The notes under the pieces are model-generated. The model was not told the DNA's origin. It searched no databases and saw only the letters and a program-made list of their open reading frames with translations. Below are positions 4,149 to 53,710 of a stretch of 64,000 nt of DNA, one piece after another. Source of the stretch: Methanosphaera sp. (GTDB lineage: Archaea > Methanobacteriota > Methanobacteria > Methanobacteriales > Methanobacteriaceae). The position numbers were made by a program, and so were the translations under genes. Location: assembly GCF_022768985.1 (NCBI RefSeq), contig NZ_JALEKL010000011.1, positions 124,001 through 188,000 on the forward strand, in the 5' to 3' direction. How positions within the stretch are numbered: the first letter of the stretch is position 1; the number at the start of each line of letters is the position of its first letter.

Positions 4149-5501
4149 ATGAAGAGAATAGTTTTATCAGGAACAGGTAGTGGAGTAGGAAAAACAACTA
4201 TATCTACAGGTATTATGAAGGCATTATCTGATGAATTTAAGATTCAGTCATTTAAGGTAGGACCTGATTATATTGATCCATCATATCATAGTTGTGCAAC
4301 ATCTATACCTTCACGTAATTTAGATTCATTTTTTATGTCTGATGGTCAAATAAGACAATCCTTTAAAAATGGTATGCAACATTCAAAAGCAAAATATGGT
4401 ATTATTGAAGGAGTACGTGGATTATATGAAGGTATAAGTCCAGTAAGTGATGTTGGAAGTACATCATCTATTGCAAAGGCACTAAATGCTCCTGTTATAT
4501 TAATTATTAACAGTCGAAGTTTAGTTAGAAGTGCTGCTGCTATGGTACTGGGTTTTAAAGCATTAGATCCTGAAATTAAAATTGAAGGTGTAATACTTAA
4601 CAATACAAAAAGTGAAAAACACTACCTTAAAACTAAAAAGGCAGTTGAAACTCTTACAAACACACCTGTTATTGGTGGAATTATACGAAACCCCGATATT
4701 ACAGTAAAACAAAGACATCTAGGCTTAATACCAGCTGTTGAAAAAGATACAATAGCAGGTATGGTAGAAAAATGGGGTGAGTTAATTAAGGAAAATATTG
4801 ATCTTGACATGCTTGTTGAAATTATGAAAAGAAGTGATGATATAGAAGATGACTATGCACCTATCTGGTCTGAAACTACAACAAAACAGAAGACAAAAGT
4901 AGCAATACCATTTGATGAAGCATTTAACTTCTATTATCGTGAAAATATAGAAGCACTTGAGGCTAACAATGCAGAAATTGAATATTTCAGTCCAATACAT
5001 GATGAAGTTATGCCAGATGCTGATGCATTATATATTGGTGGTGGATATCCTGAAATATTTAAAAAAGAATTATCATCAAATACCTCAATGTTAAAGTCAA
5101 TAAAACAATTCTCAGATGATAACAATCCAATCTATGCTGAATGTGGAGGTCTTATGTATTTAACACGTTCTATTGATGATATGCCAATGGTTGATGTATT
5201 TAACTATAAATCAACACTTACAAAGAAAGTTCAAGGATTAAGCTATACAATAGCAGATGTAATACAAGACAATCCTATACTTAAAAAAGGTCAATCATAC
5301 CATGGACATGAATTCCATTATTCAAAAGTTGAATATACAGGAAATAATAAGAACGACTTTGCACTTGAAATGAAACGTGGTGTAGGAATTACAGGAAAAT
5401 ATGATGGACTACTAAAAAACAATACACTTGCAAGTTATGTTCATACACACACCGCATCAATGGATGAATTTGCATATAACTTTACACAAAATGCATTATA
5501 A
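4149..5501 (+). CDS. cfbB: Cobyrinate / Ni-sirohydrochlorin a,c-diamide synthase
   Basis: An ATP- and glutamine-dependent amidotransferase that converts two acetate side chains of a tetrapyrrole to amides. In methanogens the same family acts on Ni-sirohydrochlorin in coenzyme F430 synthesis (CfbB) and on cobyrinate in cobamide synthesis (CbiA). The N-terminal P-loop [10 protein letters not shown] and the [12 protein letters not shown] motif mark the synthetase domain. The C-terminal class-I glutaminase-like domain has its Cys in [11 protein letters not shown] and a His in SYVHTHTAS. At 450 residues it has normal length. It is followed 63 nt later by mtd on the same strand. Sequence alone does not decide which substrate is used. 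Confidence 0.9.
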
Positions 5502-5564
5502 AAGTAGAATAGAATTAATGGTATTTAATAATATAGATTTATTATATTTTTTTGAAGTGAAAAA

Positions 5565-6383
5565 ATGGTTGTAAAAATTGCAATAATAAAAATGGGAAAT
5601 ATAGGAACATCACCTATACTAGATTTAATACTTGATGAAAGAGCAGATCGTGAAGATATAGATGTAAGAACAATAAGTTCTGGAGCAAAGATGGGAAAAG
5701 CACAACTTGATGTGCTTGATTATGTTAAAGAAAATGATTTTGATCTTATCTTATTTATAAGTCCAAATCCAAGTATTGGAGGACCTAAAAGTGCACGTGA
5801 AATACTAGCAGAAATTGACATTCCAACAGTAATAATTGGAGATCAGCCAGGTGAAAGAGCAATAAGTCAGATAAAAGAACAAAATCTTGGATATATCATA
5901 ATAAAAGCAGATCCAATGATTGGTGCAAGACGTGAATTCCTTGATGCTACAGAAATGGCAATATTTAACGCTGATATTATGCGTGTTCTTGCAATTACTG
6001 GTGTTTTCAGACTTATTCATACAACAATTGATGATATGGTTGAAGAAATTAAAAACAATAAAAATGTAACACTTCCAGAACTCATAGTTACATCAGAAAA
6101 TGCAACTGATGCTGCTGAATTTAAAAATCCATATGCTAAAAGTAAGGCAATAGCAGCATATAATATTGCATCAAAAGTTGCAGAGATGGATGTTGAAGCA
6201 TGTTTTAAAGTGAAAGATCCTGAAAAATACATACCAATGGTATGTGGTGCACATGAAATGATGGCAACAGCAGCTCAACTTGCACAACAAGCACGTGATA
6301 TTGAAAAAAGTAATGATGTACTTTTCAGATCATCACACAAACGTAATGGTGATGTAGAAGTAAAACACCACCTTATGGATTGA
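5565..6383 (+). CDS. mtd: F420-dependent methylenetetrahydromethanopterin dehydrogenase
   Basis: Mtd reversibly oxidises methylene-H4MPT to methenyl-H4MPT with coenzyme F420, a core cytosolic step of methanogenic C1 metabolism. The family N-terminus (KIAIIKMGNIGTSPI), ISSGAKMGKAQLD, SPNPSIGGPKSARE and GARREFLDATEMA are all present, and at 272 residues it is of normal length. An RBS-like aagtga precedes the ATG. In a methylotrophic H2-dependent methanogen it would mainly run to supply C1 units for biosynthesis; that is an inference from the genus. Confidence 0.96.
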   Translation: MVVKIAIIKMGNIGTSPILDLILDERADREDIDVRTISSGAKMGKAQLDVLDYVKENDFDLILFISPNPSIGGPKSAREILAEIDIPTVIIGDQPGERAISQIKEQNLGYIIIKADPMIGARREFLDATEMAIFNADIMRVLAITGVFRLIHTTIDDMVEEIKNNKNVTLPELIVTSENATDAAEFKNPYAKSKAIAAYNIASKVAEMDVEACFKVKDPEKYIPMVCGAHEMMATAAQLAQQARDIEKSNDVLFRSSHKRNGDVEVKHHLMD

Positions 6384-6412
6384 TATTAATTTTAAATCAT
6401 TCATATAAATTA

Positions 6413-6446
6413 TTTCACCACCACTATTTTTTATATTCTTTTTATT
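6413..6446 (+). terminator. C-rich/oligo-T 3' end of mtd
   Basis: About 30 nt after the mtd stop, a C-rich run (caccaccacta) is followed by T-tracts (ttttttatattcttttt). This layout recurs after many genes in the window and fits U-tract archaeal termination. Confidence 0.5.
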
Positions 6447-6585
6447 TAATTTTAAATACTGTATTTTACATAAATTAAATTAATAACTTTTTTTAAGTTA
6501 TATATTCTAAAAATAAATAATTTTAATTAGTTTTATCACGTAATAACTAATTAGAATTTTTTTAAATAAAAATAGGAGTGTTAAT

Positions 6586-7964
6586 TTGACTAATGAATCA
6601 AAAAAAGAAAACATTGAATTAATACTAGGAGATTATAAAAAAGCTATTCGTAAACTTTCATGGCCAATTGTTGTCAGTCTACTTATTTCAGTATCATATA
6701 ATTTTATTGATTGTATGTGGGTTGCAAAACTTGGAAGTAATGAACTAGCTGCAATGGGACTAATATTACCATTATATTTTGTTTTTGTAGCTTTTGGAAG
6801 TGGACTTGCAACAGGTGTTAATAGTCTTATTGCACGATATATTGGAGCACGCAACTTTAAAAATGCAAGCAATAGTGCAGTACATGGAATATTTCTAACA
6901 ATTATTGCATCAATTCTACTTGCAATTGTAATGAATTTATCACTTCCATATATTTTAGCACTTATGCATGCAGGAAGTGCAACAACTGCAGCCCTTGAAT
7001 ATGGAAATATAATATTTAATGGAGCCTTTGTATTATTTTATAGTAATGTTGGTATTGCAATTTTAAGATCAGAAGGAGATGTAAAACGTGGAATGTATTT
7101 AATGACAGCAACCACTATTTTAAATATAATTCTTGACCCAATATTTATATTTAATTTTAATATGGGAATTGGTGGTGCTGCATGGGCTACCATAATTACT
7201 GAAACTATTAACTGTATCGTTCTTATCTACTGGATCATATCAAAAAGGACACATACCTTAATGTTTCATTTAGAGACTTTAAATATAACACAGATATTGC
7301 AAAAAAGATTTTATCTGTTGCAATACCAGATACATCAGAAGATATACTAAGTAGTTCAATATTTATTATTGAAAACTATATTCTTGCAATGACAGGAGGT
7401 GTAGTTGCTGTTGCAGTTTATGCAGCTACTTTAAGAATTACTAAACTTATTACTATTCCAATTAAAGGTTATGGTTCTGCATTAATTACAGTTGCAGGAG
7501 CAGCATATGGAGAAAAAGATTATACAAAGTTTGATAAATCATTTAAGTATACAATGAATATCTCAATTATTGTTACATTTTTACTTGTTATAATTTTTTA
7601 TATATTTACACCACAGATATGTTCACTATTTTCAAGTGGAAATACTCAAATTATATCATATATTACTGATGCAACACGTTATTTACTTATATTTATGGTA
7701 TTTCAATGTTTTAGTGTAATTCCATGTATGCTTTTCCAGTCTGTTGGTAAAGGAACAACATCACTTATACTTTCACTTTGGAGAAGTATAATTTTAAAAG
7801 TTATATTTACAGTAGGAGTATTTGCTATACTTTTAAATAATGGATTTTACAGCATATATAATGGATATATTATGAGTTTAATATTTGGTGGAATTGTAGC
7901 ATTTATGTGGGCTTTAAGATATATTAGAAAATTAAAAAAATCAGATGATACAATTACTATATAG
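6586..7964 (+). pseudogene. MATE efflux transporter, broken by a one-base frameshift
   Basis: Two abutting open frames together make one full-length MATE (multidrug and toxin extrusion) transporter closely related to the next two MATE genes. It starts at TTG 6586 behind AGGAG. The first frame follows its paralogues down to CIVLIYW, then runs off into unrelated sequence and stops at 7350. From about 7236 the frame one base back resumes the family sequence (HIKKDTYLNV ... VAIPDTSEDIL) and continues through VAVYAATLR to 7964. A single lost base near 7236-7246, a region with an A5 run, explains this. It could be a real disruption, a sequencing error or, less likely, programmed -1 frameshifting. 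Confidence 0.85.
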
Positions 7965-11731: not shown

Positions 11732-11931
11732 ATATTCTAACTTAAACCTCATATTTGTAGAATTATAGATTAATTCTACTTTCTTTTTTTATATTTTCTT
11801 ATTTTTAATAGATCTATTAAAACAAACTTAACATTATTCTAAATTATATTTTATGTAATGATTAATTATAATTAATTATAAATAGATCATGATAAATAAT
11901 TATAAATAATAATATTTAGGAGAAAATTATA

Positions 11932-12675
11932 ATGTTAAAAGATAAAGTAGCTGTAGTAACAGGTGGAACAAGAGGAATAGGATTTGCAACAGTACAAACA
12001 TTCCTCGACAATGGATGTAAAGTAGTACTATTTGGATCAAGACAAGAATCAGTAGATAAAGCATTAGCAAAACTTGATGAAATTAATCCTGACTATGCAG
12101 TTGAAGGAATGTATCCTAAACTAACAGATGAAGCAGAAATTAAAGAAGCATTTGCTACAATAAAAGAAAAATATGGAAAAATCGATATTTTAGTAAACAA
12201 TGCAGGTGTTGCAGAAGACAAACCAATTGAAAATCTTAGTGTTGAAGATTTCCAAAGAACAATTGACTTAAATGTAAATGCAATATATGTATGTACAAAA
12301 GCAGTTACAGAAATTATGAAAGATCAAGGTGAAGGAGTAATACTCAACACAAGTTCAATGGTATCACTCTATGGACAAGCATCAGGATGTAGTTACCCTG
12401 CATCAAAATTTGCAGTAAATGGTCTTACAAAATCTCTTGCACGTGAACTTGGTCCTGCAAATATTCGTGTAAATGCAGTAGCACCTGGTGTAATTGCAAC
12501 AGATATGGTAGCATACCTCCCAGAAGAAGTAGTTGAAAGAATTGCATCAACAATACCTTTTAAACGTATGGGACAACCTGAAGACATAGCAAATGCATTC
12601 TTATTCCTTGCAAGTGATATGGCATCCTATGTAACAGGTGAAATTCTATCAGTTGATGGAGCTACAATGACATAA
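11932..12675 (+). CDS. Short-chain dehydrogenase/reductase (FabG-like)
   Basis: A 247-residue classical SDR. It has the NAD(P)-binding TGGTRGIG near residue 11, the NNAG motif (ILVNNAGVAE), the catalytic Ser in LNTSSMVS, the YxxxK motif (SYPASKFAV) and the typical C-terminal GEILSVDGA. It resembles 3-oxoacyl-ACP reductases, but archaea lack the standard bacterial fatty-acid system, so the substrate is uncertain. It has an AGGAG RBS and no evident operon partner; both flanks contain T-rich terminator-like sequence. Confidence 0.88.
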   Translation: MLKDKVAVVTGGTRGIGFATVQTFLDNGCKVVLFGSRQESVDKALAKLDEINPDYAVEGMYPKLTDEAEIKEAFATIKEKYGKIDILVNNAGVAEDKPIENLSVEDFQRTIDLNVNAIYVCTKAVTEIMKDQGEGVILNTSSMVSLYGQASGCSYPASKFAVNGLTKSLARELGPANIRVNAVAPGVIATDMVAYLPEEVVERIASTIPFKRMGQPEDIANAFLFLASDMASYVTGEILSVDGATMT

Positions 12676-12690
12676 ATCTTTTTAAGATTA

Positions 12691-12730
12691 TAACCTCCAA
12701 ATTACCATTCCTTTTTTTTATATTTTTTTT
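12691..12730 (+). terminator. C-rich/oligo-T 3' end of SDR gene
   Basis: taacctccaa and a second short C-containing stretch (accattcc) are followed by T8 and another T8, starting 15 nt after the stop. Confidence 0.5.
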
Positions 12731-12872
12731 AAATAATTTTACTATATTTCATATAAATATTCTACAATGTTTAATTTTAATTACTTGAAAAATAATAAAA
12801 ACTAGTTTGAATAAATACTAAACTATAAAAAGATTAACTTTTTTTTAAATTAACTTAATATGGGAGAAAAAA

Positions 12873-14480
12873 ATGGATAGTTTATTAGCAATACTTATCG
12901 TAGTATATGTTCTTTTAATGCTACTTGTTGGATTTGTTGCATATAATCGTACAAGTAACTCAGTTGATTATCTTGTAGCAGGTCGTGAAACAAATCCATA
13001 CATCATGGCATTAAGTTACGGTGCTACATTTATAAGTACGGCGGCTATTATTGGTTTTGGAGGTCTTGCTGGAACTAATGGTATAGGTATACTATGGCTT
13101 GTATTTTTAAATATTGCAGTTGGTATTCTTCTTGCATTTGTAGTATTTGGAAAACGTACACGTAAGATGGGTCAAGCTCTTAATGCTTTAACATTTCCTG
13201 AATTTATTTCAAAAAGATTCAATAGTAAATTTATACAATACTTCAGTGGAGCTTTAATATTTATTTCAATGCCTATATATGCTGCTAGTGTACTTATTGG
13301 TGCAGCCAGATTTCTTGAAACAACAGTAAATATCGACTTTAAAATTTGTATTATAATCCTTGCAATTATTATAGGATTTTATGTAATATATGGTGGACTT
13401 AAAGGTGTAATGTATACAGATGCACTACAGGGAACAATTATGTTTGCTGGAATGCTTATCTTACTTGTAAGTATATATCACATGCTTGGTGGAGTAACTA
13501 ATGCTCATCACATGTTAACACAGATGGCACCTCTATTTCCAGAATCAGCCAAGGCAACAGGTGCAACAGGGTGGACAACATTCCCAACGATGGGATCGCC
13601 GTTCTGGTGGAATCTTGTTTCATCAATTATTCTTGGTGTAGGAATTGGAGCTATAGCTCAACCACAACTTGCTGTACGTTTTATGACAGTAAAATCAAAT
13701 AAAGAATTAAATCGTGCAGTTCTTGTTGGTGGTGTATTTATATTTGTAACAACATTCACAGCATACATTGTAGGTGCACTTTCAAATGTATACTTCTTCC
13801 AGCATACAGGACAAATTGCAATTACTGCTGCTGGTGGTAATGTTGATAAGATTATTCCAACATTTATTAATGCAGCAATGCCGAATTGGTTTACATATAT
13901 CTTTATGTTAACACTACTTTCTGCTGCTATGAGTACAATCAGTACACAGTTCCATGTTCAGGGATCTTCAATATCACACGATATTTATGGTGTGCTAAAA
14001 GGTCATAAAAGAGACAGCTTAAAAGTTACAAGAATTGGTATTCTTATTGCTATTATAATTGCTGTAGTTTTAGCATTCATATTACCTGAAAACATTGTAG
14101 CTCAAGGTACTGGTATATTCTTTGGTATTTGTGCTGCAGCATTCCTTCCTGTATATATTTGTGCTCTTTTCTGGAAACGTGCAACAAAACAGGGAGTTAT
14201 TGCTGGAATTACTAGTGGTACACTTATAAGTCTTTTCTGTCTTATATTTACTCATAAAAAAGAGGCAGTTGGACTTGGAATTTGTAAAGCTTTAACTGGT
14301 CAAAGTGTTCTATTTACTGCTATGCCATGGCCGTATGTTGATCCAATGGTTATTGCATTACCACTTTCATTTATAATTACAATTGTTGTATCACTTCTTA
14401 CACAGAATTCTAAAAAAGAACAAGAAGATATTGATGCATTATTTGAAGGTAAAACTGAAGGTGGAGATATAAATGATTGA
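12873..14480 (+). CDS. Sodium:solute symporter (SSS family)
   Basis: A 535-residue polytopic membrane protein of the SSS/LeuT-fold superfamily, which couples Na+ entry to uptake of solutes such as amino acids or vitamins. Visible markers are the N-terminal YLVAGRETNPYIMALSYGAT, STAAIIGFGGLAG, YVIYGGLKGVMYTDALQG and the sodium-site helix region LLSAAMSTISTQFHVQGSSI. A good RBS (gggaga) precedes the ATG. The last eight bases overlap a small downstream gene encoding a single-helix protein, a pairing known for some SSS transporters. The substrate is not identifiable. Confidence 0.9.
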   Translation: MDSLLAILIVVYVLLMLLVGFVAYNRTSNSVDYLVAGRETNPYIMALSYGATFISTAAIIGFGGLAGTNGIGILWLVFLNIAVGILLAFVVFGKRTRKMGQALNALTFPEFISKRFNSKFIQYFSGALIFISMPIYAASVLIGAARFLETTVNIDFKICIIILAIIIGFYVIYGGLKGVMYTDALQGTIMFAGMLILLVSIYHMLGGVTNAHHMLTQMAPLFPESAKATGATGWTTFPTMGSPFWWNLVSSIILGVGIGAIAQPQLAVRFMTVKSNKELNRAVLVGGVFIFVTTFTAYIVGALSNVYFFQHTGQIAITAAGGNVDKIIPTFINAAMPNWFTYIFMLTLLSAAMSTISTQFHVQGSSISHDIYGVLKGHKRDSLKVTRIGILIAIIIAVVLAFILPENIVAQGTGIFFGICAAAFLPVYICALFWKRATKQGVIAGITSGTLISLFCLIFTHKKEAVGLGICKALTGQSVLFTAMPWPYVDPMVIALPLSFIITIVVSLLTQNSKKEQEDIDALFEGKTEGGDIND

Positions 14481-16162: not shown

Positions 16163-17179
16163 TTAAGTTTCGGCTTTCTTTGAATTTTTACGGTAAGCTG
16201 AAGGCAACACGCCAATTTCTGATTTAAATGCCTTTGAAAACTTACTACTATTTTTATATCCAATCATACTTGCAATCTTTGTAATTGGATAATTTGTATT
16301 TTCAATTAAATCCTTTGCTCTTTGGAACTTATATGAACGATACCATGAATATAACGGTCTTCCATACATCTCTTTAAAACAACTTTTAAGTGTTGTAATA
16401 TTAATTCCAAATTCAACTGATAAATCATCAAGTGATGCATAGCTTCCAATGTTACGTGAAATCATATTTTTAATCTTACGAACAACACGAATTTGAGAAT
16501 CAGTAAATGTTTTAAGTTTAGGATCATCTTCAGGATCAACCATATCAAAGTTATAAATATGTATCATTAATTCCAGGAATTTAATACGAAAATAACCTTT
16601 CTTTACACCCTCCATTGATGAATTGAAGTTTATTATCTGATTTAAAACTTCCTCAATTTGATTGTTATTAGTATATATCAAGTTTGGATGGCGTCTAATA
16701 ATTCTAAATAAATTATTAATAGCATCATTCGTATTTAAATATGATTTTAATACTTGACCACTTGTTTTTGTTAATATTATATTTAAAATATGGGTTCCTT
16801 CACCATAATTAAATGTATCAGGATATTCATCAATTGAGTATATATTCATATCTCCATCTTTTAAAAATAGATATTTATCTTTAGTATTTGCAGGAACCTG
16901 ACAACGTCCTTTAATTATACAATTTATAATAATTGTATCTTTAGGATTTAAAAATTCAAAGATTCCATCATAATTTGATTCATTACTTCCAAGTTTTGCT
17001 GTTGTCTCTATAACTTGCATCTGTGGAAGTATATTATAATAATCTATTTCAATTTTTGACTTATATGGTGGATTTATTATTAATTTATGACCACCAACAA
17101 TCTTTTCTACTGTTAAATATTGGAGATATTCATCTTTTATCTTAACATTGTTACCTATACTATACTCTGTTAAAACCAT
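16163..17179 (-). CDS. AraC/XylS-family transcriptional regulator
   Basis: A 338-residue protein whose last 100 residues are a double helix-turn-helix AraC domain: ASLDDLSVEFGINITTLKSCF (first HTH), MYGRPLYSWYRSYKFQRAKDL (linker helix) and ITKIASMIGYKNSSKFSKAF (second HTH), ending GVLPSAYRK. The YGRPLYSWYRSYK linker recalls the PchR-like subgroup. Residues 1 to about 230 would be the ligand-sensing region (beta-rich, unassigned). AraC proteins are mainly bacterial, so transfer from bacteria is likely. It lies upstream of an unknown gene, which may be its target. Confidence 0.9.
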   Translation of the reverse strand: MVLTEYSIGNNVKIKDEYLQYLTVEKIVGGHKLIINPPYKSKIEIDYYNILPQMQVIETTAKLGSNESNYDGIFEFLNPKDTIIINCIIKGRCQVPANTKDKYLFLKDGDMNIYSIDEYPDTFNYGEGTHILNIILTKTSGQVLKSYLNTNDAINNLFRIIRRHPNLIYTNNNQIEEVLNQIINFNSSMEGVKKGYFRIKFLELMIHIYNFDMVDPEDDPKLKTFTDSQIRVVRKIKNMISRNIGSYASLDDLSVEFGINITTLKSCFKEMYGRPLYSWYRSYKFQRAKDLIENTNYPITKIASMIGYKNSSKFSKAFKSEIGVLPSAYRKNSKKAET

Positions 17180-26460: not shown

Positions 26461-28791
26461 TTAGTTTTCAAGTTGATTAATCTGGCGTAGTTGTTCATCA
26501 AATTCAAAGAATTGTTTTGAAAGACCTCTAAAGTATGGAATAAATACACCATGTATTATTAATCTATCTGGATTTATTCCTTCATCTTCAAGTTTTCTTT
26601 TCATTGTAATAACATTTTGACGTATCTCTGTATGTTTTGGAGAATCAGGGTATTCACCAAGGAATACTCCATCTGCACCATGAGTTAATGCATACTTGAT
26701 GTGTCTGTATTTTACACGATTTATAAATGGAATATTTATTATACGTACAGAGTCAGGACAACTTACACGGTTTATTCCCATATTGTTTGCTGATACATTT
26801 CCTATATCATCAAGGAATGCAATGATAATTTGCTCACCTGGTTTTTTATCTTTTAGTGCTCCACGAATACTTGCCTCAAGTCTTTCATCACTTTGTCCTT
26901 GTATACTTATTGCTTCACGTTCACATGCCATTATACATACACCACATCCTGTACATGATATTGGATCAACTGATATTGAATGTTTACTTTTTGTAATTGC
27001 CTGATATACACATTCCTGTGTACATTTACCACAGAGTATACATTTTTTAACATTTACCTGTGCAATGTATGGTTCTACTTCAAGACCACCATTTACAAGT
27101 TCTGATATCTTTGTTGCAGCAGCATTTGCCTGAATTATACTATCTGTTATATCTTTTGGTCCTTGTGCTGTTCCACATACAAAGATTCCCTCTATATCTG
27201 TTGTTACAGGTTTCATTTTTGGATGTTTTTCTTTAATAAAATCATCCTCTGTTAGTGCTACATTAAGTTTACTTGCCACATCTATTGTTCCCTGTGATGA
27301 TTCTAGTGCTGCTGATAAAACTATGAGGTCTGTTGGAATTTCCTCACGTGTTGATGTGAGAGTATCTTCTATTCTTACAAGCATATGATCTCCTTCACGT
27401 GCAATTTCACCAGGTCTTCCACGTATTAGTTGTACACCATTATCTTGTGAATATTTATAGTATTTTTCATATACTCCTACTGTTCTCATATCAGTATAAC
27501 ATATTATAACTTCAGTATCAGGATAATGTGATCTTATAAGATTTGCATGTTTTAGAGCTATCATACAACATACCTTGGAGCAGTATTTATGTCCTCCTGG
27601 CATCTGGTCACGTGATCCTACACATTGTATCATTACAACACGTCTTGGTACTTTACCTGTTGATGGTACAAGTAGTTTTCCCTCTGTTGGCCCATTTACT
27701 CCCATTATACGTGCTAGTTCCATCTGATTTATTACATCATCATATAGTTCATGTCCATATTCTGGACGTTGTGATGTATCGTATCTTTGATGTCCTGTTG
27801 CTATTACTATTGATCCTACAGTTTCTGATATTACATCATTTATTGCATCTAGATTAATTGCATCTGTTGGACATACCTTTAGACATGCACCACACTTGAT
27901 ACAATTTTCATCATCAAGTGTATATGTACTTGGTACTGCCTGTGGAAATGGTTTATATATTGCTTTTCTTGTTATTAATTCTTCATTCCAGTCATCTGGT
28001 ACTATTGTTGGACATACTGCTGTACAACGTCCACAGCTTGTACACTTATATGGATCTACATATACTGGTTTTTTACTAAGCATTACATCAAAGTTTCCAG
28101 ATCTTCTCTCTGATTTTTCAAGTGTTGTATTTGTTAGAAGACGTATATTTTCATGTTGTATCATTTCACTTATTACAGGATTAAGTAGACATGCTGCACA
28201 GTCTTCTGTTAGTTTTTCTGGTGAAAATACCTTTCCTACTTTTACCATTGATCCTCCAACTGCTGCTTTTTGTTCAATTAGTATTACTTCCATTCCCTGA
28301 TTTGCTAATGATACAGCTGATGTTAATCCTGCAATTCCTGCTCCTATTACAAGTACTTTATTTTTTACTTGTGTTGGTATTTTTGCTAGTGGTTCATCAT
28401 ATTTTACTGTTTCAACAGCAGAGTTTATGAGTGATAATGCCTTATTTGTTGCTTTTTTTGGATCATCTGTTACCCAGGAGCATTGTTCTCGTATGTTTGG
28501 CATTTCAAATAGGTATGGATTTAATGGTTTTATATAGTTTTGGAACGTATTTCCATGAGTTATTCGTGAACATGCAGCTATTACTACACGATCCAGGTGA
28601 TTTCTTAGAATTTGATCTTTTATTATTTGATTTCCTTCATGTGAACATAGATTTTGATGATGTTTTACAGAGATTATATCTTTATTTTCTAGTAATTTTT
28701 TTTCAATTGCATCAAGATCTATTACATCTGAGATGTTTCCTCCACAATGACATAGAAATACTCCTATTCTTGGATTTTCATCATCACTCAT
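26461..28791 (-). CDS. hdrA: Heterodisulfide reductase subunit A with degenerate MvhD-like C-terminus
   Basis: HdrA is the flavin-bifurcating core of the cytosolic CoM-S-S-CoB reductase complex. In this 776-residue protein: N-terminal CHCGGN (14-19); FAD-binding VLVIGAGIAGL (146-156); ferredoxin clusters at 250-261 and 298-308; the Cys region 390-409 (YCSKVCC); two further clusters at 584-594 and 613-623. Residues about 655-770 form an extra domain resembling MvhD (RIINIPF..NRV, HGADGVFLGEYP, EGINPDRLIIHG), but all its iron-sulfur cysteines are replaced. The ATG at 28791 is chosen over GTG 28809, which is part of the GAGGAGG RBS. It overlaps hdrB by 8 nt. The divergent N-terminal motifs suggest a second HdrA type. 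Confidence 0.92.
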   Translation of the reverse strand: MSDDENPRIGVFLCHCGGNISDVIDLDAIEKKLLENKDIISVKHHQNLCSHEGNQIIKDQILRNHLDRVVIAACSRITHGNTFQNYIKPLNPYLFEMPNIREQCSWVTDDPKKATNKALSLINSAVETVKYDEPLAKIPTQVKNKVLVIGAGIAGLTSAVSLANQGMEVILIEQKAAVGGSMVKVGKVFSPEKLTEDCAACLLNPVISEMIQHENIRLLTNTTLEKSERRSGNFDVMLSKKPVYVDPYKCTSCGRCTAVCPTIVPDDWNEELITRKAIYKPFPQAVPSTYTLDDENCIKCGACLKVCPTDAINLDAINDVISETVGSIVIATGHQRYDTSQRPEYGHELYDDVINQMELARIMGVNGPTEGKLLVPSTGKVPRRVVMIQCVGSRDQMPGGHKYCSKVCCMIALKHANLIRSHYPDTEVIICYTDMRTVGVYEKYYKYSQDNGVQLIRGRPGEIAREGDHMLVRIEDTLTSTREEIPTDLIVLSAALESSQGTIDVASKLNVALTEDDFIKEKHPKMKPVTTDIEGIFVCGTAQGPKDITDSIIQANAAATKISELVNGGLEVEPYIAQVNVKKCILCGKCTQECVYQAITKSKHSISVDPISCTGCGVCIMACEREAISIQGQSDERLEASIRGALKDKKPGEQIIIAFLDDIGNVSANNMGINRVSCPDSVRIINIPFINRVKYRHIKYALTHGADGVFLGEYPDSPKHTEIRQNVITMKRKLEDEGINPDRLIIHGVFIPYFRGLSKQFFEFDEQLRQINQLEN

Positions 28792-29764
28792 GTAAGTAAT
28801 CCTCCTCACTGTTATATTCTACTCCTAGTTTGTCAAGTAATGGTTCTACATTTACTGTGTGTGTTTGTATTCCAAGTACTTTGTATGGATCTGCTCCCAT
28901 ATATAATGCTACAAGTTGTGCTATGTTTAATACTGCCATGTAGTGTTTTTCTTCTTTTTGTCTTTGTATTAATTCTTCATATCTGTCAAATTGTATCTGA
29001 CAGTTTGGACACATTACAAGTAGTACATCTACTTTTTCTTCAAATAGACTGTCAAATTTATCCATTGTTGCTTCAAGTGAAAGTTGGCGATTTGCATATC
29101 TTTGTCTGAATCCATTTCCACATGTTAGTCTTTTATGATCATACCATCCTATTGTTGGTATTTTCATTGCTTCACATATTTCATCTATTACCATTGGATT
29201 TCTTACACCTGCTAGTGTGTCATCATAGTGTACTTTACAGTAGTGACATCCATGGTGTGTTGCTATTTTTACATTTGAAAGATCAGTCTTTTTGTATTTT
29301 GGTAGTTTATCACGCATTGCATAGAGTATATCTACAACGTGTGTTATGTCATCACGTACATCTATGTCACCTTTGGTGTATTGGAGGTGTTCAAGTCCAT
29401 TTTCTCTGAATGCTTCATTGATTTCTTCTCGTGTTTTATCATCTTCATTTAATGTTTTTGCTGCATTTTTTAGTATTGCATAGCATGTTGCACACATTGG
29501 TACGTAGTGTTTGTGTTTGTTTTCTATTGCATGACTGAAGTTACGTGCTGCTAGTGCTACTGTTGATTTTTCATCGAATATATCATAGTAGTGTCCTAGT
29601 CCTGTACAGCATGATTGGTTTCTATCTATTACATACTCTATTCCTAACTTGTCAAATACATACTTTGTTGATGCTTCAACTCCTGGGTATTCGGCAGATA
29701 CAAGGCAACTTCTAAATAGTGTAATGTCTTTTGTTGGTATAAATTTATCAATTTTTTCACTCAT
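28784..29764 (-). CDS. hdrB: Heterodisulfide reductase subunit B, altered second CCG motif
   Basis: HdrB holds the two non-cubane [4Fe-4S] clusters at which CoM-S-S-CoB is reduced. The first CCG domain is complete: Cys20, Cys52-Cys53 and Cys91/Cys94 (MCATC). The second has Cys173, Cys215 and Cys252/Cys255 (MCPNC), but the expected Cys-Cys pair reads Thr214-Cys215 (RLTCGNGF). At 326 residues it is longer than usual (about 290-300), with about 10 extra residues in front and a longer tail. The start overlaps the hdrC stop by one base, so the subunits are translationally coupled. Confidence 0.92.
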   Translation of the reverse strand: MSEKIDKFIPTKDITLFRSCLVSAEYPGVEASTKYVFDKLGIEYVIDRNQSCCTGLGHYYDIFDEKSTVALAARNFSHAIENKHKHYVPMCATCYAILKNAAKTLNEDDKTREEINEAFRENGLEHLQYTKGDIDVRDDITHVVDILYAMRDKLPKYKKTDLSNVKIATHHGCHYCKVHYDDTLAGVRNPMVIDEICEAMKIPTIGWYDHKRLTCGNGFRQRYANRQLSLEATMDKFDSLFEEKVDVLLVMCPNCQIQFDRYEELIQRQKEEKHYMAVLNIAQLVALYMGADPYKVLGIQTHTVNVEPLLDKLGVEYNSEEDYLHE

Positions 29765-30378
29765 TAGTCATCATCTTCTTCTACTGCTTTTATTTGTTTT
29801 ACTCGTTTTTTAAATCCTATTGCTTCTAATGTTTTTCCTACTTCTTCTTCAGCTTCAGGTAGTAAAAATCTACTTTCTAGCCCTAATTCTTCTCTTACTT
29901 CTTCTAGGTGTTCTTGTAGGTTGTCCCAATGTTTTCCATAGTCTTCTGATAGTTGTCCACAGTATTCTTGTGGTATTATTCCTAGTCCTTTGTCTATAAA
30001 GCTGTCTGCAAAGCTTATGAATGATACTATTTGTTTTTTTCCTTCATCTTGTTCTATTGCCATTTGTCTTAGTATCTGGTTTACTTCACATACACTGTTT
30101 CCTACAGGACATATACTGTGGCAGTTGTAGCAGTAGAAACAGTTCCATATGTCTTTATCTTCTAGTATTGTTGTGTCGTTGTCTAGCACTCTTTTTATTA
30201 CTACTCTTGAATCGTAGTCTGAGTGTCTTGATGCTGGACATGTTGATGCACACATTCCGCATTGTACACATCTTAGTAGTCCTAGATCTGGTGATGCTTT
30301 TATATCATTTAGCACTTTGTGTGCTAGATCGTTTTCATCTTCTTTTTGACCCATTTCTCGTCTTTTTACTTTGGTCAT
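29764..30378 (-). CDS. hdrC: Heterodisulfide reductase subunit C
   Basis: HdrC is the iron-sulfur subunit that passes electrons from HdrA to HdrB. Two [4Fe-4S] motifs are visible: CVQCGMCASTCP (37-48) and CFYCYNCHSICP (80-91). The 204 residues include a charged C-terminal helical part. It is the first gene of hdrC-hdrB-hdrA; AGGTGAT precedes its ATG. In many Methanobacteriales hdrA is separate from hdrBC, so a contiguous hdrCBA set, with the odd features of its partners, suggests a second or specialised complex. Confidence 0.93.
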   Translation of the reverse strand: MTKVKRREMGQKEDENDLAHKVLNDIKASPDLGLLRCVQCGMCASTCPASRHSDYDSRVVIKRVLDNDTTILEDKDIWNCFYCYNCHSICPVGNSVCEVNQILRQMAIEQDEGKKQIVSFISFADSFIDKGLGIIPQEYCGQLSEDYGKHWDNLQEHLEEVREELGLESRFLLPEAEEEVGKTLEAIGFKKRVKQIKAVEEDDD

Positions 30379-41015: not shown

Positions 41016-44000
41016 CTATCCTGTAATTTCAAGTGGAATTAATATATTGCCTTTTAAGTATCTGCTGTTTTCACCAAGTACAACTGTAATATTATGATTT
41101 CCAACTTTTGTTTTCTCAGTTATAAGATCAACATTTAACATTCCATCATAGATGTAAGTATTAAGTACTGTTGCTCCATCAATTTTTATGGCAATTTTAG
41201 TTTTACCATAAATTTCTCTTCCCTGTGCATCTTTAATTGTCATATTAATTGTTGTATTTTCACCTTTTGGTGTTGTTATCTTATCTGCTGTTATGTTTCC
41301 AATAGCACTTTTATCTACATTAAAGTTATCTGTTACATCTACTCTTTCATAGTTTTTATCAGAATATACTGCTGTTATGTTATATTCTCCAGATCCAATG
41401 TATGATGGTAGTATGTAGTTAAGGTGTGCTTTACCATCTTCTGTCACATTTACTGTAATTGTATTGTTATTTTCATCAAGTAATGTTTTACCATTAATTT
41501 TGAAACTTACAACTCCACTATCTATCTGTTTTTCATTATCTGTAACATTTACATCAACAATTAAGTTACCTGATGTTGTAGGTGTATTTGTTGATATGCT
41601 GATATTTGCATCACGTTTTATGATTGTTAGGTTTATATTAAATTCTTCTGCATTATATAGGCTGTTTTCTCCAAGTTTTACTGTGATTTTATGATTTCCT
41701 ACTTTTTGTGTTTGTGTATCTAAAACTTCATAAAGTACTCCATCTTTTATTGTTGTATTCATAAATGTTTTATCATTTAGTTTTATTACACCTTTAATTG
41801 TACCTATTAGTTGTACTCCATTTTCATCATATAATGTGATGTTAATTACTGTTTATGTTTTTGCCTTAATTGTCATTTCCATATCTTTAACTTCAATATC
41901 TAATCCTTCAATATTACATTGTGTAGTATTTTCTACTTTGTTGTAATTGTTTGATTCATATACTGCTGTTATATTATATTGTCCTTGTCCAATTTCTTGT
42001 GGTAGTGTGTAGTTTAGTTGTGCTTTGTTGTCTTTAACATGAACTTTTATTGGGTTTCCATTTTCATCACGTACTACTTTATTGTTGATTTTAAATACAA
42101 CATTTCCACTATTTATTGTCATGTTTTCATCATTTAATGTAACATTAATTGCAAGTGTATTTAGTACTTTTGTTGTATCTGCTTCAACTGTTAGTATTGC
42201 ATCACGTTTTATAATGTTAAGTTTAGATGTTAATATTTTTTCATTATATATTCCAAATTCATCAGGTTGAATATTAAATTCAACACTATATTCACCTGCT
42301 GGTAGATTTTCTGTTGGAATTGTATCTTTAAGTACTCCATCAACAATTGTGGTATTTAGTATGCTTGTTCCATTTACTACTACTTCAACAGGAATACTTC
42401 CAAGAAGAGCATTTCCTAATTCATCATTGATTATTACATCAACATGACTATTCAAATACTCTAGTATCATCAAGCACTACTGTTGTATCTGCAATATCCA
42501 TTTTTATTACATCTACTGGAAGATTGTTACTTGCCTTATTGTAGTAGTTGTTTGTAATATAATCTGCTTCTACTGTATATGGCATGAATGGTATTACTAT
42601 AACATTTGATGGTATTGTGTAAGTATATGTAGCTTTTCCATCTTTAAGATCTAGTGTTGTAATTTCATTGTTGTCAAATTTAAGTACAACTTGTCCTTCT
42701 TTTACAGGTTGTGTTGTGTTTTCATCAGTGACTGTTATTGTAAATGTAATATTGTGTAGTGGTTTTATCTCAGATACATCAGATGTAATATCTACTATTA
42801 CATCACGTTTTAATATGTTAAGTTTAGTTGTGAATGTTTTTGCGTTGTATATGTCTGTTTCTTCAATTCTAAATTCAACATCATATTCTCCTGCAACTAG
42901 TGTGTCTGTTGGTATGGTATCTTTAAGTACACCATCAACTATTGTTGTGTTAAGTACACTGGTACCATTTAGTAGTACTTCAACAGGAATACTTCCAATG
43001 AGTGTATTTCCTTTTTCATCATTGATTGTTAAGTCTATAATTGTATTTTCAAATGTTTTAATTTCATCTATTGTGATTGTTTTATCTTCAATATCAAGTT
43101 TTTCCAGGTTTACTTCTATTTTATTACTACCTGTTGTGTAGTAGTCATTTTCTTCATATACTGCTTCAAAGTGGTATGGTAGGAATTCAAAGATTATAAC
43201 ATCAGTTGGTATTGTGTAGGTATATGTTGCACGTCCATCTGTAAGTTCTAGTGTTGCAATTTCACCATGTTCATCAAAGCTAAGTACAACTTTTCCATTT
43301 CTTACACTTTGTGCTGTGTTTTCATCAGTAACTGTTATGGTTACTGTAACATTATCTAATGGTTTAACAGGGTCAGCATTAGTTGTAATATCTACTATTA
43401 CACCACGTTTTAATATGTTAAGTTTAGTTGTGAATGTTTTTGCGTTATAGTTGTCTGATTCTGGTATTTTAAATTCAACATCATATTCTCCTCCAGCTAG
43501 TGTATCTGTTGGAATTGTATCTTTTAAAACACCATCAACAATTGTAGTGTTAAGTACACTGGTACCATTTAGTAGTACTTCAACAGGAATACTTCCAATA
43601 AGTTGTGTTCCCATTTCATCATTGATTGTTAAGTCTATAGTTGTATTTTCAAATGTTTTAATTTCATCTATTGTGATTGTTTTATCTTCAATGTCACGTT
43701 TTATAATTGTGAATTGTGTTTGATTTTCTACTCCTACAATTACTACTACATCATAGTCTCCTACTGGTAGTGTTGATGTGTCTATTTCTTGTGTTGTTTG
43801 TCCACCTGTTATTGTAGTGTTTTTATAGATTTTATCTCCTATTTTAAATGCTACTGGTAGTTCATCTGTGAAAAGTGTTCCATCTGCTTTTTTAAGTGTT
43901 ACATCTACTGTTATTTTATCAAATACTCTGATGTCACTTACTGGTTGTATTTCTATTATATCTACTGCTTCTACATTGTCCATTAGTAGGTTTATATTAC

Positions 44001-47000
44001 TATCTGCATATGTTGGATATGACATTTTTATTGTTTTATCTCCACTTGTTGAGAAGGTGTAGTTGAAGCTTGTAATATTTGTTGTTGCATTTTTATTTGT
44101 AGTAAATATTTGATTGTCAACTGTTATTGTTATGTCTTCATTTTCACTTAGTGTATCTACCTGTATTGGTGTGTAGTATGTATTTTCTTCATATGCTTTT
44201 GGTGTTGTAATTGTATTGTTTAGTGTTACATTTATAAGTGTTATATCTGCATTTGAATAGATTGTGTTGTTTTGATTTAATGTATTTGTAAATATGGAAT
44301 TTTCTATATTTAATTGTCCTTTATCATTATATATTACTCCACCCATAAGATTTTCTGTTGTTTGATTGTTATCTGTGAAGTTTGAATTTCTTATTTCTAC
44401 ATTTCCCTGTGAATTGTAGATTACACATCCTATTCCTGCTGCTGTATTTGAGCTAAATTGTGAATCTTCAATTATTAGGTTTGAATTTCCACCTAAATAG
44501 ATTGCACCTGGACCATTAGCATTAATTTGAGTTTTTGTAATATTTGATGATTTAATTTTTAGGATATTTGAACTTCCTCCAATGTAGAATAATCCACCCA
44601 CATTTGTTGAGATTGTTTCATTAATTAATGTATTTTCTACTATTATATTATCATTACCTGATAGATATCCTACTGCTCCTGGTGCACTTGTTGCAACTGT
44701 ATTTGTGATATTTGTTGATTTTATTGTTAGATTATTTGATGTTCCTGAATAGAATATTGATCCCATCATTGCTGATGTATCATTAATATTTGAATCTATT
44801 ATACTTACATTTGAACTTGTAAAGTCAACTATTCCTCCAGGACTTCCTGCTTTTGTATTTGTAAAGTTTGCATTTGTAATATTAAGATTTGTATTTCTTA
44901 TACTGAATGCTCCACCTGTTGATCTTGCATATGTTGTATTGAAATTTGCATTTGAAATTGTGATATTTGAATTAGTACTTGCTATTACTCCTCCATTACC
45001 ACCTGTTGTATTACATCGTGTGAAGTTTACATTTGTAAGATTTATTCTTGAATTTAATGTATTAAATACTCCACCATTTGATGCATTACAATCTGTGAAG
45101 TTTACATTTGTAGCATTAACTGTTGTATTTGTTATATTAAATACTCCTCCAGGACCTGATGATGATGTTTGATTAAATATTACATTATCCATTATAATTG
45201 TTGAATCTGATGCTTCAAATACTCCTCCAGTACCACTTGATATGGTATTTATGTATGTTACATTTTGTACTATCTGTGTACTATTTACACTTTTTTCCAT
45301 TCCATATCCTGAAAATGTTATATTTGTAAATATTAAGTTTTGTAGTGTTATGTTTGTATTAACATTTGAATTTATACCTACAGGTCCTGATGTATTATTT
45401 GTGAAGTTTGAATCTAGTATTGTTATGTTGGTATTTTCATTGTAGTTTATTGATGAATTACTTCGTGCTTTGTTATTTGTGAAGTTTACATTTGTAATAT
45501 TTACATATGAATTATTGTTGAAGTTTATTCCACCAACTACACCTGTGTTATTTGTGAATTTTGAATCTGTTATATTCATATAACTTTTATTATTATAATT
45601 TATTCCACCTTTATCATTTGCTGTGTTATCTTTAAATTCTGATTGTATTATATTTAAGGTAGCAGAATTAGTGTTATAATTTACAGATCCATTTAATGCC
45701 ATGTTATTTATGAAACTTGAATTTGTAATATTTATATTTCCACCAATATTATAGTTTACTCCACCAATTTTCATTTGCATGATTTAATGTAAATGTTGAA
45801 TTTTTAATATTTATATTAACAGCATTAGAATTATAATTTACAGAACCATTTTTTGCTGTGTTATTTATGAAACTTGAATCTGTAATATTTAAAATACTGG
45901 TATTATTGTTATAGTTTACTCCACCATTACCTAGACCTGCTATGTTGTTTTCAAATACTGAATTATTTATAACTACATATTCTAGGTTTTGATTATAATT
46001 TACTCCACCATTTTCATGTGCTACATTTGCTGTGAAATTTGAATCTGTAATATTTAAATTTCCACCGAAATTATAGTTTACAGAACCATTACCTGTTGCA
46101 TTACTATTTGTGAAATTTGAATTTATAATTGTTAAATAAGCATTAGAATTATAATTTACAGCACCATTTGTTGCATTGTTGTCTGTGAAGTTTGAATTAT
46201 TTATCACTAAATTAACATTATTATAATTATAGTTTGCTCCACCTTCAGTTGCTGTGTTATTTATGAAAGTTGAATTATTAATTATTGTTTTATTGTTACG
46301 ATTAGAATTTGCTCCACCTTGATTTGCTGAGTTATTTGTAAATATACAACCTTCAATTGTTAGATTTCCATCGTTCCAATTTGCTCCACCTTTACTTAAA
46401 GCTGTATTGTTTGTGAAGCTTGAATTTATAATTGTCATAACTCCATAGTTAACATTTGCTCCAGCATCAACATCTACATTGTTGTTTTCAAATGTGGAAT
46501 TTACAATTGTCATAGTTCCTGGTCTTACATAGTTTACTCCACCATTATTTGCATGATGATTTTTAAAGCTTGAATTTGTTATTTCTACTGTTCCTTGATT
46601 TAAATAACAAAATGCTCCACTATGTGATGCTGTTATGTTTTCCACTGTTAGTTTTGAGTTATTTACATATATTACTGCACCATCTGATGCTTGACAGTTA
46701 TTTATTATTAGATTTTTAAGATTTAATGTGTAGCCTTCTGCTACTGTTATAAATTGATGATTTTGTCCATCAATTGTTTGTCCATTTCCATTTATTGTTA
46801 AAGTTTTGGTATTTGAACCTGTCCAGTTTATTGTATTTGTCACTTGGTATGTTCCCTGATTTAGGTTTATTGTTGTCTCTGTCTCTGAACTTGATTTTAT
46901 ACTTTCTATTGTATTATACAGTTGATCATAATTATCTACTGTATAGGATGCTTTTTTTGTTTCTTTATTACTAATTTTTTTCGGACTATCTAATTTTTTC

Positions 47001-50330: not shown

Positions 50331-53300
50331 CTATTCTTCTGGAACCTGATGAAGTGGTATTTTTACCCAGATAATTTTATCTTCATCTTTTGCTCTCTGG
50401 TAATAGCCTCGTTTTTCAAGTGCTTTAAGAGTTTTTGCAAAGTTTTCCTTTTTAAGTTCTGCAAATCCTATACTTTCAAGATAATCATAAAGTTCACTTG
50501 CACTCATTGCATCAGGAAGAATGTGATATATCTGTGATTGGAAACTTGTAAGACCAGGTAATGGTTTTTCTGTCATAATTTGGAAGTAATCACGGTATTT
50601 AAGTGAATCTGCAAGTTTTACCTCACTTTCCTTAATTTGAGCAGACATATCCTCGAGTTGTTTTGCAAATTTCTCATTTTCTTCTTTGAGTTTTTCATCT
50701 TTTTGAAGCTTAATTTCAAGATCTGCAACCTGTTTTTCATAGTCAATTTTCATATCGTTCTTTTCAGCTTCAATAGCATTAACTTTTACTTTAAGAGCAT
50801 CATACTCCTTGAGTTGTTGATTTTTATCATCAATAAGTTTTTTATGATTTTCAAGTTCTTCATTTTTAAGTTCAACAAGATTTTTAAGTTCATTAAGTGA
50901 AGATGTAACATTTATGAGTGTTGATTCACTTTCTTGAAGTTTCAATCCTCTTTCCTCAATTGTTGCATCTTTTTGAGATATCTCATCTTTAAGATCATCA
51001 ATAACTTCTAGTTTCTGTGTAGTTTCATCAATTTCAGATTTAAGCTTATTGATATCTTCATCATAACCTTCAATTTGCTTGGTAAGATCTTCAATTTCAT
51101 TATCTTTAAGTTTAATCTTATTTTCAAGTATTTCAATATGTTTTTTAATATCATCAATAAGATCATCTTTTTTAGCTAAACTTTCATCTTTAGCCTTAAC
51201 AATACCCTCAAGATGAGCATATTTCTGTGTATTATCATTATATTTTTCTCTGATAATTTCAAGATCATCATTTAATGAATCAATATTTTCATTAAGTTCA
51301 TCAATTTTATAATCTCTCTGACTTACAATGGAGTTAAGTTTTCCAATTTCATGATCTTGTTCTTCCTTAGATTTAGTGAAATTCTCTTTCATCTTAAAGA
51401 TTTCATCATCTTTTTCCTTAATTTTTTCTGCAACAATAACATTGTTCTGTGCAATTTGATCATTTACCTGTTTTACTTTCTCTTGAAGATCCTGAATATT
51501 ATTTCTTAAATCCTTAATTTTATCGTTTTTATCAACAATTTCAACTTCTTTAGATTTAAGCATCTTATTGAGTTGTGATATTTCAACATCTTTCAATTCA
51601 AGTTTCTGTGGAAGTGCTGCAATCTTATCTTTTTGATCCTGTATTTGTTTGTTAAGTGCTGTGATTTCCTCTGATGTATTCTTCTTAGTTGACTGTAGAT
51701 TTTCTTTAACTGATTTAAATTCTGCATCTTTTTCTTTTATCACAACATTTAATGTACTGTTTTCCTGTTCAAGTTTTGAAAGAGCAGTATTTTTCTCATC
51801 AACAGTTTTCTGCAGATATTGTTTTTCATTTAATAGTTTTTCATTACTATTTGTGAACTTTGTAAGTTCTTCATTTAACTCATCAATTTGTGTTGAAGTT
51901 TTCTTATTTAATTCATTATAGTCAATTTTAAGTTTGTCAAACTCTGCATCTTTTTCATATAATTCATGTTTAACATCATTTAATTGTTGTGTTAATTCGT
52001 TTTCTTTTACATCATTAACTTCTGCTGCTTCAACTTTAACTTTAAGATCTGAAATTTCATGATCTCTTTGTGTTAGAATATCTTCAAGTTCAACAACTTT
52101 AGATTCTGCTGAATCCTTATCTGCTGTTAATGATTTAATCATAAGATCTTTCTGTGTTGTATCTTCTTTAAGTTTTGAAATTTCACCAGATACACCAGTA
52201 CTGCTTTCTTTAAGTTCATTATATGACTTTTCAAGTTCATCATATCTGATTTTTAGGATGTCATATTCAACTTCAGCTGCAGCTTCCTCATCATCTATTT
52301 TTGATTGTGCCTCTGCTTTTGCATCTTCAAGTTCTTTAACTTTACCTTTAAGATCTTCAACTTCAGATTTTGATGTTGTAACTTCAATTTCTAGTTGTTC
52401 TATTTTTTCATCTTTATCTTTTACATCAGCTTTAAGTGTTTCATTTTCATTAGATAATGTATTATTTACATCTACTAATTCCTGATTTTCCTTAATTACC
52501 TCATCATCTGCTGCTACAACTGATGCATCTACCACTTTAAGATCTTCTGAAGCTTTTCTAAGTTTGGCGTTTTCATTTTCAAGTTCTTCAATCTTAATTT
52601 GATTAATTCGAGTTGAATCTTTCAGATGTTCATATTTTACTTTCACATCTATTAATTCATCAGATTTACGTGTGAAATCCTCAATTAATTCACTCATAGA
52701 TGTACTTGTTGTAGATGTTACATCAACTGTTGGTGTTTGAGCTTTAAGTTTTAATGATTCAGCTTCCTGCTTTAAGGATGCATTTTCATCTTCAAGTTCT
52801 GCAATTTTAATGTTAAGTTCTGCAAAGTCATCATCTGAATTTTGTGCAACTTTAAGTTGTGCAATGTCTTGCTGGTATTTTTCTATTGCTGCTTGTTTTT
52901 CATCTAATTGTTTTTTATAATCTTCAACTTCACTATCTTGTATTTGTTGTGTTGTCTGTTTTAGTTGTGCATTTTCATCTTCAAGCTTACTTATTTGCTG
53001 GTCACGTTGTGCCATTTCTAGTGTAAGCTTATTTTTAAGATCTGGAATTTCCTTTAATTCCTCATTTTGTCTGTCAATTACTGCTTTTAGCTGATTTATC
53101 TCTGTTGTTGATGTTGATGATTGTGCATCTTCTACTTCTTGTTTTAGTTTTTTAATTTCATCTTCGAGTGCTGCTGTTTTTTCTATTTCATCAACATTTA
53201 CTTTCTGTAGCTCATCTACTTGAGCATCTTTTTTTGTAACTTCTTCTTGTAATTGTTTTAATTGTTTTTCATAATCTTGTTTTTCTTCTTCTACTTCTTT

Positions 53301-53612: not shown

Positions 53613-53710
53613 TGTGATCACTATCCAATATATATTATTTATATATGTTTAAAACATTTTTTTATAATTTACTATTTTAGTTAAATAATTTTCAATTTTT
53701 CCCCATTATT

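What the first reader, a model, noticed from the sequence alone, without database searches (positions are those of the whole stretch)
26461..26830. HdrA ends in an MvhD-like domain that has lost its iron-sulfur cysteines
Residues about 655-770 align in pattern with MvhD (strand RIINIPF, NRV, HGADGVFLGEYP, INPDRLIIHG), the subunit that links hydrogenase or formate dehydrogenase to HdrA. Where MvhD has its cluster cysteines (CNWC, CSGRV, CHPGDCH), this protein reads FLDDIG, PFINRV and EYPDSPKH. A fused but cluster-free docking domain could block the normal electron donor or dock a different one, suggesting a different bifurcating complex.
Basis: partly seen in the sequence, partly recalled or inferred. 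Interest (0 to 1): 0.7.

Follow-up and report, generated by a model that had tools for sequence, protein, structure and literature searches.

The report
HdrA with a cluster-free MvhD domain
A second copy of a key methanogen enzyme carries a built-in electron-entry domain that has lost its iron-sulfur cluster; this holds in every relative examined and goes with the genes that make coenzyme M, so the enzyme probably works as a simple ferredoxin-driven reductase for coenzyme M upkeep and not as an energy-splitting machine.

Summary
HdrA (782 aa; window 26461-28809, minus strand) ends in an MvhD/FlpD domain. The predicted fold matches MvhD structures (E about 1e-9), but the cluster cysteines are absent. 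It is neither a local oddity nor decay: none of 50 distinct homologues from 14 Methanobacteriaceae genera has them, and the domain is under purifying selection. NCBI already has a model for this protein (hdrA_Methbact), and HdrA-MvhD fusions are published as 'type Ia', described as carrying a [2Fe-2S] cluster. Two further changes accompany the loss in all 50: the flavin-site glutamate of bifurcating HdrA (Glu356) is Ala or Gly, and one cysteine of HdrB's second CCG motif is replaced while another appears nearby. Profile probing suggests that Methanosarcina HdrA1B1C1 shares all three changes; HdrA2 keeps the MvhD cysteines and Glu. The hdrCBA operon lies beside coenzyme M biosynthesis genes (comA, MMP16/comF, comD, comE) in several genera and is mostly lost together with MMP16. 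Best reading: a ferredoxin-dependent, probably non-bifurcating Hdr tied to coenzyme M synthesis or thiol upkeep, with the dead domain as a structural plug in the donor arm. No biochemistry was available.

The parts
26461..28809 (-). hdrA, 782 aa: HdrA core plus fused C-terminal MvhD-like domain
   Evidence: NF041891 hdrA_Methbact 1191.9 bits over 14-777 (below its 1300 cut-off)
26479..26826 (-). MvhD/FlpD-fold domain (residues 662-777), no cluster cysteines
   Evidence: PF02662 E=1.9e-19; AF2 pLDDT 94 and Foldseek to MvhD 5odh_D E=7.6e-10
26803..26814 (-). LDDI (666-669) at the position of MvhD CNWC
   Evidence: alignment A1
26725..26727 (-). F695 at the position of the Cys of MvhD CSGR
26635..26652 (-). 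YPDSPK (720-725); Y720 and K725 at the positions of the two Cys of MvhD CHxxDCH
27712..27714 (-). A366, equivalent of Glu356 of the bifurcating HdrA of Methanothermococcus (A or G in 50/50 relatives); K409 equivalent K420 is kept
   Evidence: role of E356/K409 from PMC12054007
28784..29764 (-). hdrB, 326 aa, overlaps hdrA; second CCG motif altered
   Evidence: NF041780 509 bits, cut-off 450
29123..29125 (-). HdrB T214: first Cys of the CC pair of the second CCG motif is replaced (T/H/S in 50/50)
   Evidence: profile probe
29237..29239 (-). HdrB C176: extra Cys (CHYC), 50/50 here, Leu in the genome's canonical HdrB
29764..30378 (-). hdrC, 204 aa, two intact 4Fe-4S motifs
   Evidence: NF041890 265.4 bits

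Best explanation
This is the HdrA subunit of a second soluble HdrABC complex that works as a ferredoxin-driven, probably non-bifurcating disulfide or persulfide reductase serving coenzyme M biosynthesis and thiol upkeep. The C-terminal domain is a former MvhD that became fused and then lost its [2Fe-2S] cluster. In canonical complexes that cluster is the last station for electrons from hydrogenase, formate dehydrogenase or Elp before the bifurcating flavin. Without it, and with the domain covalently filling the MvhD place, that entry is closed. Electrons are proposed to enter at HdrA's intact ferredoxin domains and run via FAD and the 4Fe-4S clusters to HdrC and HdrB, where a remodelled cluster site reduces a CoM-containing disulfide, or possibly delivers reducing power to the coenzyme M synthase MMP16/ComF. 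Shown here: fold, cysteine loss, Glu356 loss, HdrB change, conservation, gene neighbourhood, co-loss. Inferred: absence of the cluster in the protein, electron path, no bifurcation, substrate, and the plug role.
For: MvhD fold without ligands, conserved in 50/50 and under purifying selection. All HdrA 4Fe-4S cysteines kept, Glu356 equivalent A/G in 50/50, Lys409 equivalent kept. Profile probe: the NCBI family for Methanosarcina-type ferredoxin:CoB-CoM HdrA (NF041778) is indifferent to Cys at all three MvhD sites (C to A +0.2, +0.3, +1.5 bits) and disfavours Glu at 366 (-3.0), whereas HdrA2 (NF040770) demands Cys (-10.5, -5.2, -10.5) and Glu (+3.3). HdrB passes NF041780, which prefers Thr214 and Cys176; the classical TIGR03288 prefers the opposite. 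MMP16 (TIGR03287), ComA, ComE and ComD flank hdrCBA; MMP16 lies within about 5 kb of fused hdrA in some 60 genomes (coordinates compared by eye). Co-presence with MMP16 at >=90% completeness: 72 both, 8 neither, 1 and 2 discordant, p=1e-8; losses of fused HdrA need at least 5 changes on a tree. Published: M. acetivorans dhdrABC has 66% less free CoM-SH (PMC12713407); hdrABC rises in dMMP16 (PMC12068725); the dhdrABC defect is relieved by sulfide or by CoM plus acetate (PMC9963511).
Against: No biochemistry for any Methanobacteriaceae member. Co-loss partly reflects physical linkage: one deletion can remove the whole cluster; Fisher's test ignores phylogeny. Thermophilic families and G106, G133, G138 have MMP16 without fused HdrA, so it is not required for CoM synthesis everywhere; G004 has it without a detected MMP16. 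In Methanosphaera itself hdrCBA is not beside com genes (MMP16 and ComA lie on contig C9). Absence of Glu356 does not prove absence of bifurcation. No Methanosarcina sequence could be fetched, so the HdrA1 link rests on profile scores and NCBI naming.
Confidence: 0.5

Rival explanations
1. The complex hands electrons directly to MMP16/ComF: the cluster-free MvhD-like domain is a docking face for ComF, and HdrABC supplies the electrons for converting sulfoacetaldehyde to coenzyme M.
For: MMP16 directly upstream of hdrC on the same strand in four genera; MMP16 carries an inserted ferredoxin domain (PMC12068725); co-loss.
Against: MMP16 works without fused HdrA in thermophiles and in heterologous E. 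coli (PMC12068725); genes unlinked in Methanosphaera; HdrB and HdrC are retained, which a pure ferredoxin relay would not need.
Confidence: 0.15
2. One reading: a distinct electron-bifurcating (or confurcating) complex in which the cluster-free domain docks another electron donor, such as F420H2, as reported for M. acetivorans HdrA2B2C2.
For: FAD site, Lys409 and all 4Fe-4S motifs are retained; HdrA2 with a fused MvhD bifurcates with F420H2 (PMC5296606); HdrA1B1C1 has been proposed to confurcate (PMC6019823).
Against: HdrA2 keeps the Cys and Glu that are lost here; no donor gene is linked to hdrCBA in any sampled genus; co-loss with CoM synthesis is not expected of a catabolic bifurcating enzyme.
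Confidence: 0.2
3. Housekeeping ferredoxin-dependent heterodisulfide reductase in catabolism, with a vestigial MvhD domain, and no special link to coenzyme M synthesis.
For: NCBI names the family ferredoxin:CoB-CoM heterodisulfide reductase; reduced-ferredoxin cycling is the published view of HdrA1B1C1 (PMC9963511).
Against: Clustered with comA, MMP16, comD and comE and lost in genomes without MMP16 that still have canonical HdrA; HdrB active-site region altered; domain strongly conserved, hence not vestigial.
Confidence: 0.15

Closest known systems
hdrA_Methbact (NCBIfam NF041891), Methanobacteriaceae HdrA
   Same: Full-length match including the C-terminal domain (residues 14-777, 1191.9 bits); the family's other members share the Cys-free domain and the Glu356 loss
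   Different: The Methanosphaera member is below the model's 1300-bit cut-off; the model carries a name but no tested function
Methanosarcina HdrA1B1C1 (NF041778/NF041780, ferredoxin:CoB-CoM heterodisulfide reductase)
   Same: HdrB passes the family cut-off; by profile probing, shares the absence of MvhD cysteines, of Glu356 and of the HdrB CC motif
   Different: 791.9 bits for HdrA, under the 1400 cut-off; PMC6019823 states HdrA1 lacks the MvhD extension that HdrA2 has; its sequences could not be read here
M. acetivorans HdrA2 and 'type Ia' HdrA-MvhD fusions (PMC5296606, PMC12054007)
   Same: Same domain order: HdrA core, two ferredoxin domains, C-terminal MvhD
   Different: HdrA2 has the cluster cysteines and Glu356 (by profile probe); the published type Ia description gives the domain one [2Fe-2S] cluster
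MvhAGD-HdrABC and FdhAB-MvhD-HdrABC complexes (5odc, 7bkb)
   Same: HdrA fold (E=5e-72 to 5odc_A) and MvhD fold
   Different: Separate MvhD with [2Fe-2S], Glu356 present, hydrogenase or formate dehydrogenase attached

Membership tests
HdrABC soluble heterodisulfide reductase | HdrA core with FAD fold and all 4Fe-4S motifs, with HdrB and HdrC | tested here: met
   gene order hdrC-hdrB-hdrA wherever flanks allow
HdrABC soluble heterodisulfide reductase | Two intact CCG motifs (CX31-39CCX35-36CX2C) in HdrB | tested here: not met
   first motif intact; second has T214 in place of the first Cys of CC, with extra C176
Type Ia HdrA (HdrA fused to MvhD) | C-terminal MvhD fold | tested here: met
Type Ia HdrA (HdrA fused to MvhD) | [2Fe-2S]-binding cysteines in the MvhD domain | tested here: not met
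   0 of 50 distinct sequences
Electron-bifurcating HdrA | Lys409 and Glu356 at the flavin | tested here: not met
   Lys kept, Glu replaced by A or G in 50/50
Electron-bifurcating HdrA | Coupled reduction of ferredoxin and heterodisulfide | not testable with these tools
   needs purified enzyme
HdrA1B1C1-type (NF041778/NF041780) | HdrB over the family cut-off | tested here: met
   509 vs 450 bits; canonical HdrB of the same genome 180.7
HdrA1B1C1-type (NF041778/NF041780) | HdrA over the family cut-off | tested here: not met
   791.9 vs 1400 bits; the Methanobacteriaceae have their own model NF041891
Coenzyme M biosynthesis gene set | Linked to and co-inherited with comA, MMP16, comD, comE | tested here: inconclusive
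   linked in about 60 genomes and co-lost, but unlinked in Methanosphaera and absent in thermophiles that make CoM

The most novel reading that the evidence does not exclude
A whole subclass of soluble HdrABC, spanning Methanobacteriaceae and Methanosarcina HdrA1B1C1, has given up bifurcation by losing the donor cluster, the flavin glutamate and one HdrB cluster ligand, and has been recruited as the reductase of coenzyme M biosynthesis, possibly supplying electrons for the ComF step, whose electron and sulfur sources are unsettled.
Probability: 0.3. Interest if true: 0.8.

Novelty: new variant of a known kind. Interest (0 to 1): 0.6.

Why it matters
HdrA-MvhD fusions are treated in the literature as one type with a [2Fe-2S] entry cluster. 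If a large branch of them is cluster-free and lacks the bifurcation glutamate, then counting such genes as bifurcating enzymes in methanogen energy budgets is wrong. The link to coenzyme M genes would help explain why the Methanosarcina hdrA1B1C1 mutant shows low CoM-SH, and gives a concrete candidate for the unidentified reductant in CoM synthesis. It also gives a natural example of a bifurcating enzyme taken apart by evolution.

Tried and rejected
Local pseudogene or sequencing error: rejected, domain open and conserved in over 100 genomes with low dN/dS. A chance match: rejected by Pfam E-value and fold search. Loss special to Methanosphaera: rejected. Linked donor genes (mvh, fdh, frh, adh): none among the recurrent neighbours within 6 kb in sampled loci. 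Direct fetch of Methanosarcina HdrA1/HdrA2: not possible; the genome-contig scan returned only Methanosphaera-type relatives plus a few distant archaeal and bacterial ones, and 'of' does not accept named loci; replaced by profile probing with single-site changes. The full-length AF2 model (pLDDT 84) confirmed the HdrA fold, but coordinates could not be compared with the MvhD position in the complex, so the 'plug' pose is untested.

Full report
What is there. The ORF at 26461-28809 (minus) encodes a 782-residue HdrA, overlapping hdrB (28784-29764) and following hdrC (29764-30378). It has the HdrA core (best solved relatives 9sfi_A and 5odc_A, E about 1e-159) and a C-terminal PF02662 domain at 662-777 (E=1.9e-19). 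The genome (its named relatives are Methanosphaera MAGs) also has a canonical HdrA, 38% identical and ending at about residue 657, a canonical HdrB on another contig, and two cysteine-containing MvhDs, one beside mvhGA and one beside fdhAB-like genes.

The domain. Aligned with those MvhDs, all five conserved cysteines are replaced. A model built from window and relative sequences (pLDDT 94.4) matches the four solved MvhD-type chains and nothing else well (TM 0.78). So the fold is MvhD and the ligands are gone.

How general. Fused homologues occur in about 108 of 139 Methanobacteriaceae genomes searched, and in none of the 13 genomes of the other families in the phylum. Of 50 distinct sequences from 14 genera none has the ligand cysteines. 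dN/dS of the domain is 0.04-0.23 where computable, of the same order as the core. NCBIfam already has a model, NF041891 hdrA_Methbact, covering the domain. The loss is therefore old and the domain is maintained.

Linked changes. Glu356 of the Methanothermococcus enzyme, which holds Lys409 at the flavin and is used as a marker of bifurcation (PMC12054007), is Ala or Gly in 50/50 while Lys is kept. HdrB's second CCG motif has Thr (or His/Ser) for the first Cys of the CC pair and an extra Cys three residues after the motif's first Cys, again in 50/50. The cluster cysteines of HdrA, the first HdrB motif and HdrC are otherwise kept.

Relation to HdrA1 and HdrA2. Methanosarcina sequences could not be fetched. 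Single-site changes were scored against NCBI profiles instead. HdrA2 (NF040770) loses 10.5, 5.2 and 10.5 bits when the MvhD cysteines become Ala and gains 3.3 when Ala366 becomes Glu. NF041778, the ferredoxin:CoB-CoM HdrA family, changes by +0.2, +0.3, +1.5 and -3.0. NF041780 HdrB likewise prefers Thr214 and Cys176. Exactly one of 14 control genomes exceeds the cut-off for each of these families, very probably M. acetivorans (the tool does not say which). The window HdrB passes NF041780 (509 vs 450); the HdrA does not pass NF041778. This suggests that M. acetivorans HdrA1 carries a cryptic, cluster-free MvhD-like end, although PMC6019823 describes the MvhD extension as absent from HdrA1.

Genomic association. 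In genera g3, g6, g9 and g10 hdrCBA is preceded on the same strand by MMP16 (TIGR03287, 532.7 bits) and ComA (TIGR03849), and in these and two more genera ComE and ComD lie nearby. MMP16 is the coenzyme M synthase ComF (PMC12068725). Comparing coordinates by eye, MMP16 lies within about 5 kb of fused hdrA in some 60 genomes. Among Methanobacteriaceae genomes at least 90% complete, 72 have both, 8 neither, 1 only fused HdrA, 2 only MMP16 (p=1e-8; the absence of MMP16 in four genomes not listed was deduced by elimination, and phylogeny is not corrected). A tree of canonical HdrA needs 7 changes of state, at least 5 forced by well-supported branches; most losses coincide with MMP16 loss. M. ruminantium M1 lacks comA, comD and comE and needs CoM (PMC2812497), and M. 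millerae, which makes CoM, has an additional hdrABC relative to it (PMC4987999). The eight genomes at least 90% complete that lack both keep canonical HdrA, so the fused complex is not needed for catabolic methanogenesis there.

Mechanism. In solved complexes electrons pass from donor subunits to the MvhD [2Fe-2S] and then to the bifurcating FAD, on a mobile arm that includes HdrA's terminal domains (PMC12350162). Removing that cluster closes this entry while the ferredoxin-domain clusters, the FAD fold and the path to HdrC and HdrB remain. The simplest reading is ferredoxin in, disulfide (or related sulfur species) out, without bifurcation, the domain staying as a structural part of the arm. 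Published phenotypes of M. acetivorans dhdrA1B1C1 fit: free CoM-SH down 66% (PMC12713407), relief by sulfide or CoM plus acetate (PMC9963511), and induction of hdrABC when MMP16 is deleted (PMC12068725). The authors of the last paper caution that the rescue used 1 mM CoM, far above need.

Limits. Everything functional is inference from sequence, neighbourhood and work on a distant organism. Co-loss is inflated by linkage. Thermophilic relatives and three mesophiles have MMP16 without this complex, and Methanosphaera has the genes unlinked.

Noticed in passing
window 16163-17179 (-): Predicted protein with a C-terminal AraC-type helix-turn-helix (PF12833 E=2.3e-18), a regulator class more typical of bacteria, in a methanogen genome.
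   Followed up: no
L063 (G055) 5002-7314 and 11836-14148: One genome carries two tandem copies of the MMP16-hdrC-hdrB-hdrA(fused) cluster.
   Followed up: partly
G058 (ComA at G058:C25:3061-3783): Genome with ComA but neither MMP16 nor fused HdrA detected: a partial loss that could separate linkage from function if the assembly is sound.
   Followed up: no
window 50331-53621 (-) and 42448-45780 (-): Large proteins: one coiled-coil-like with only weak Pfam matches, one with a beta-helix region as in adhesin-like surface proteins.
   Followed up: no
L067 3278-3778 (+): A 167-aa gene convergent with fused hdrA in genera g4, g15 and g16 with no Pfam or NCBIfam match.
   Followed up: no
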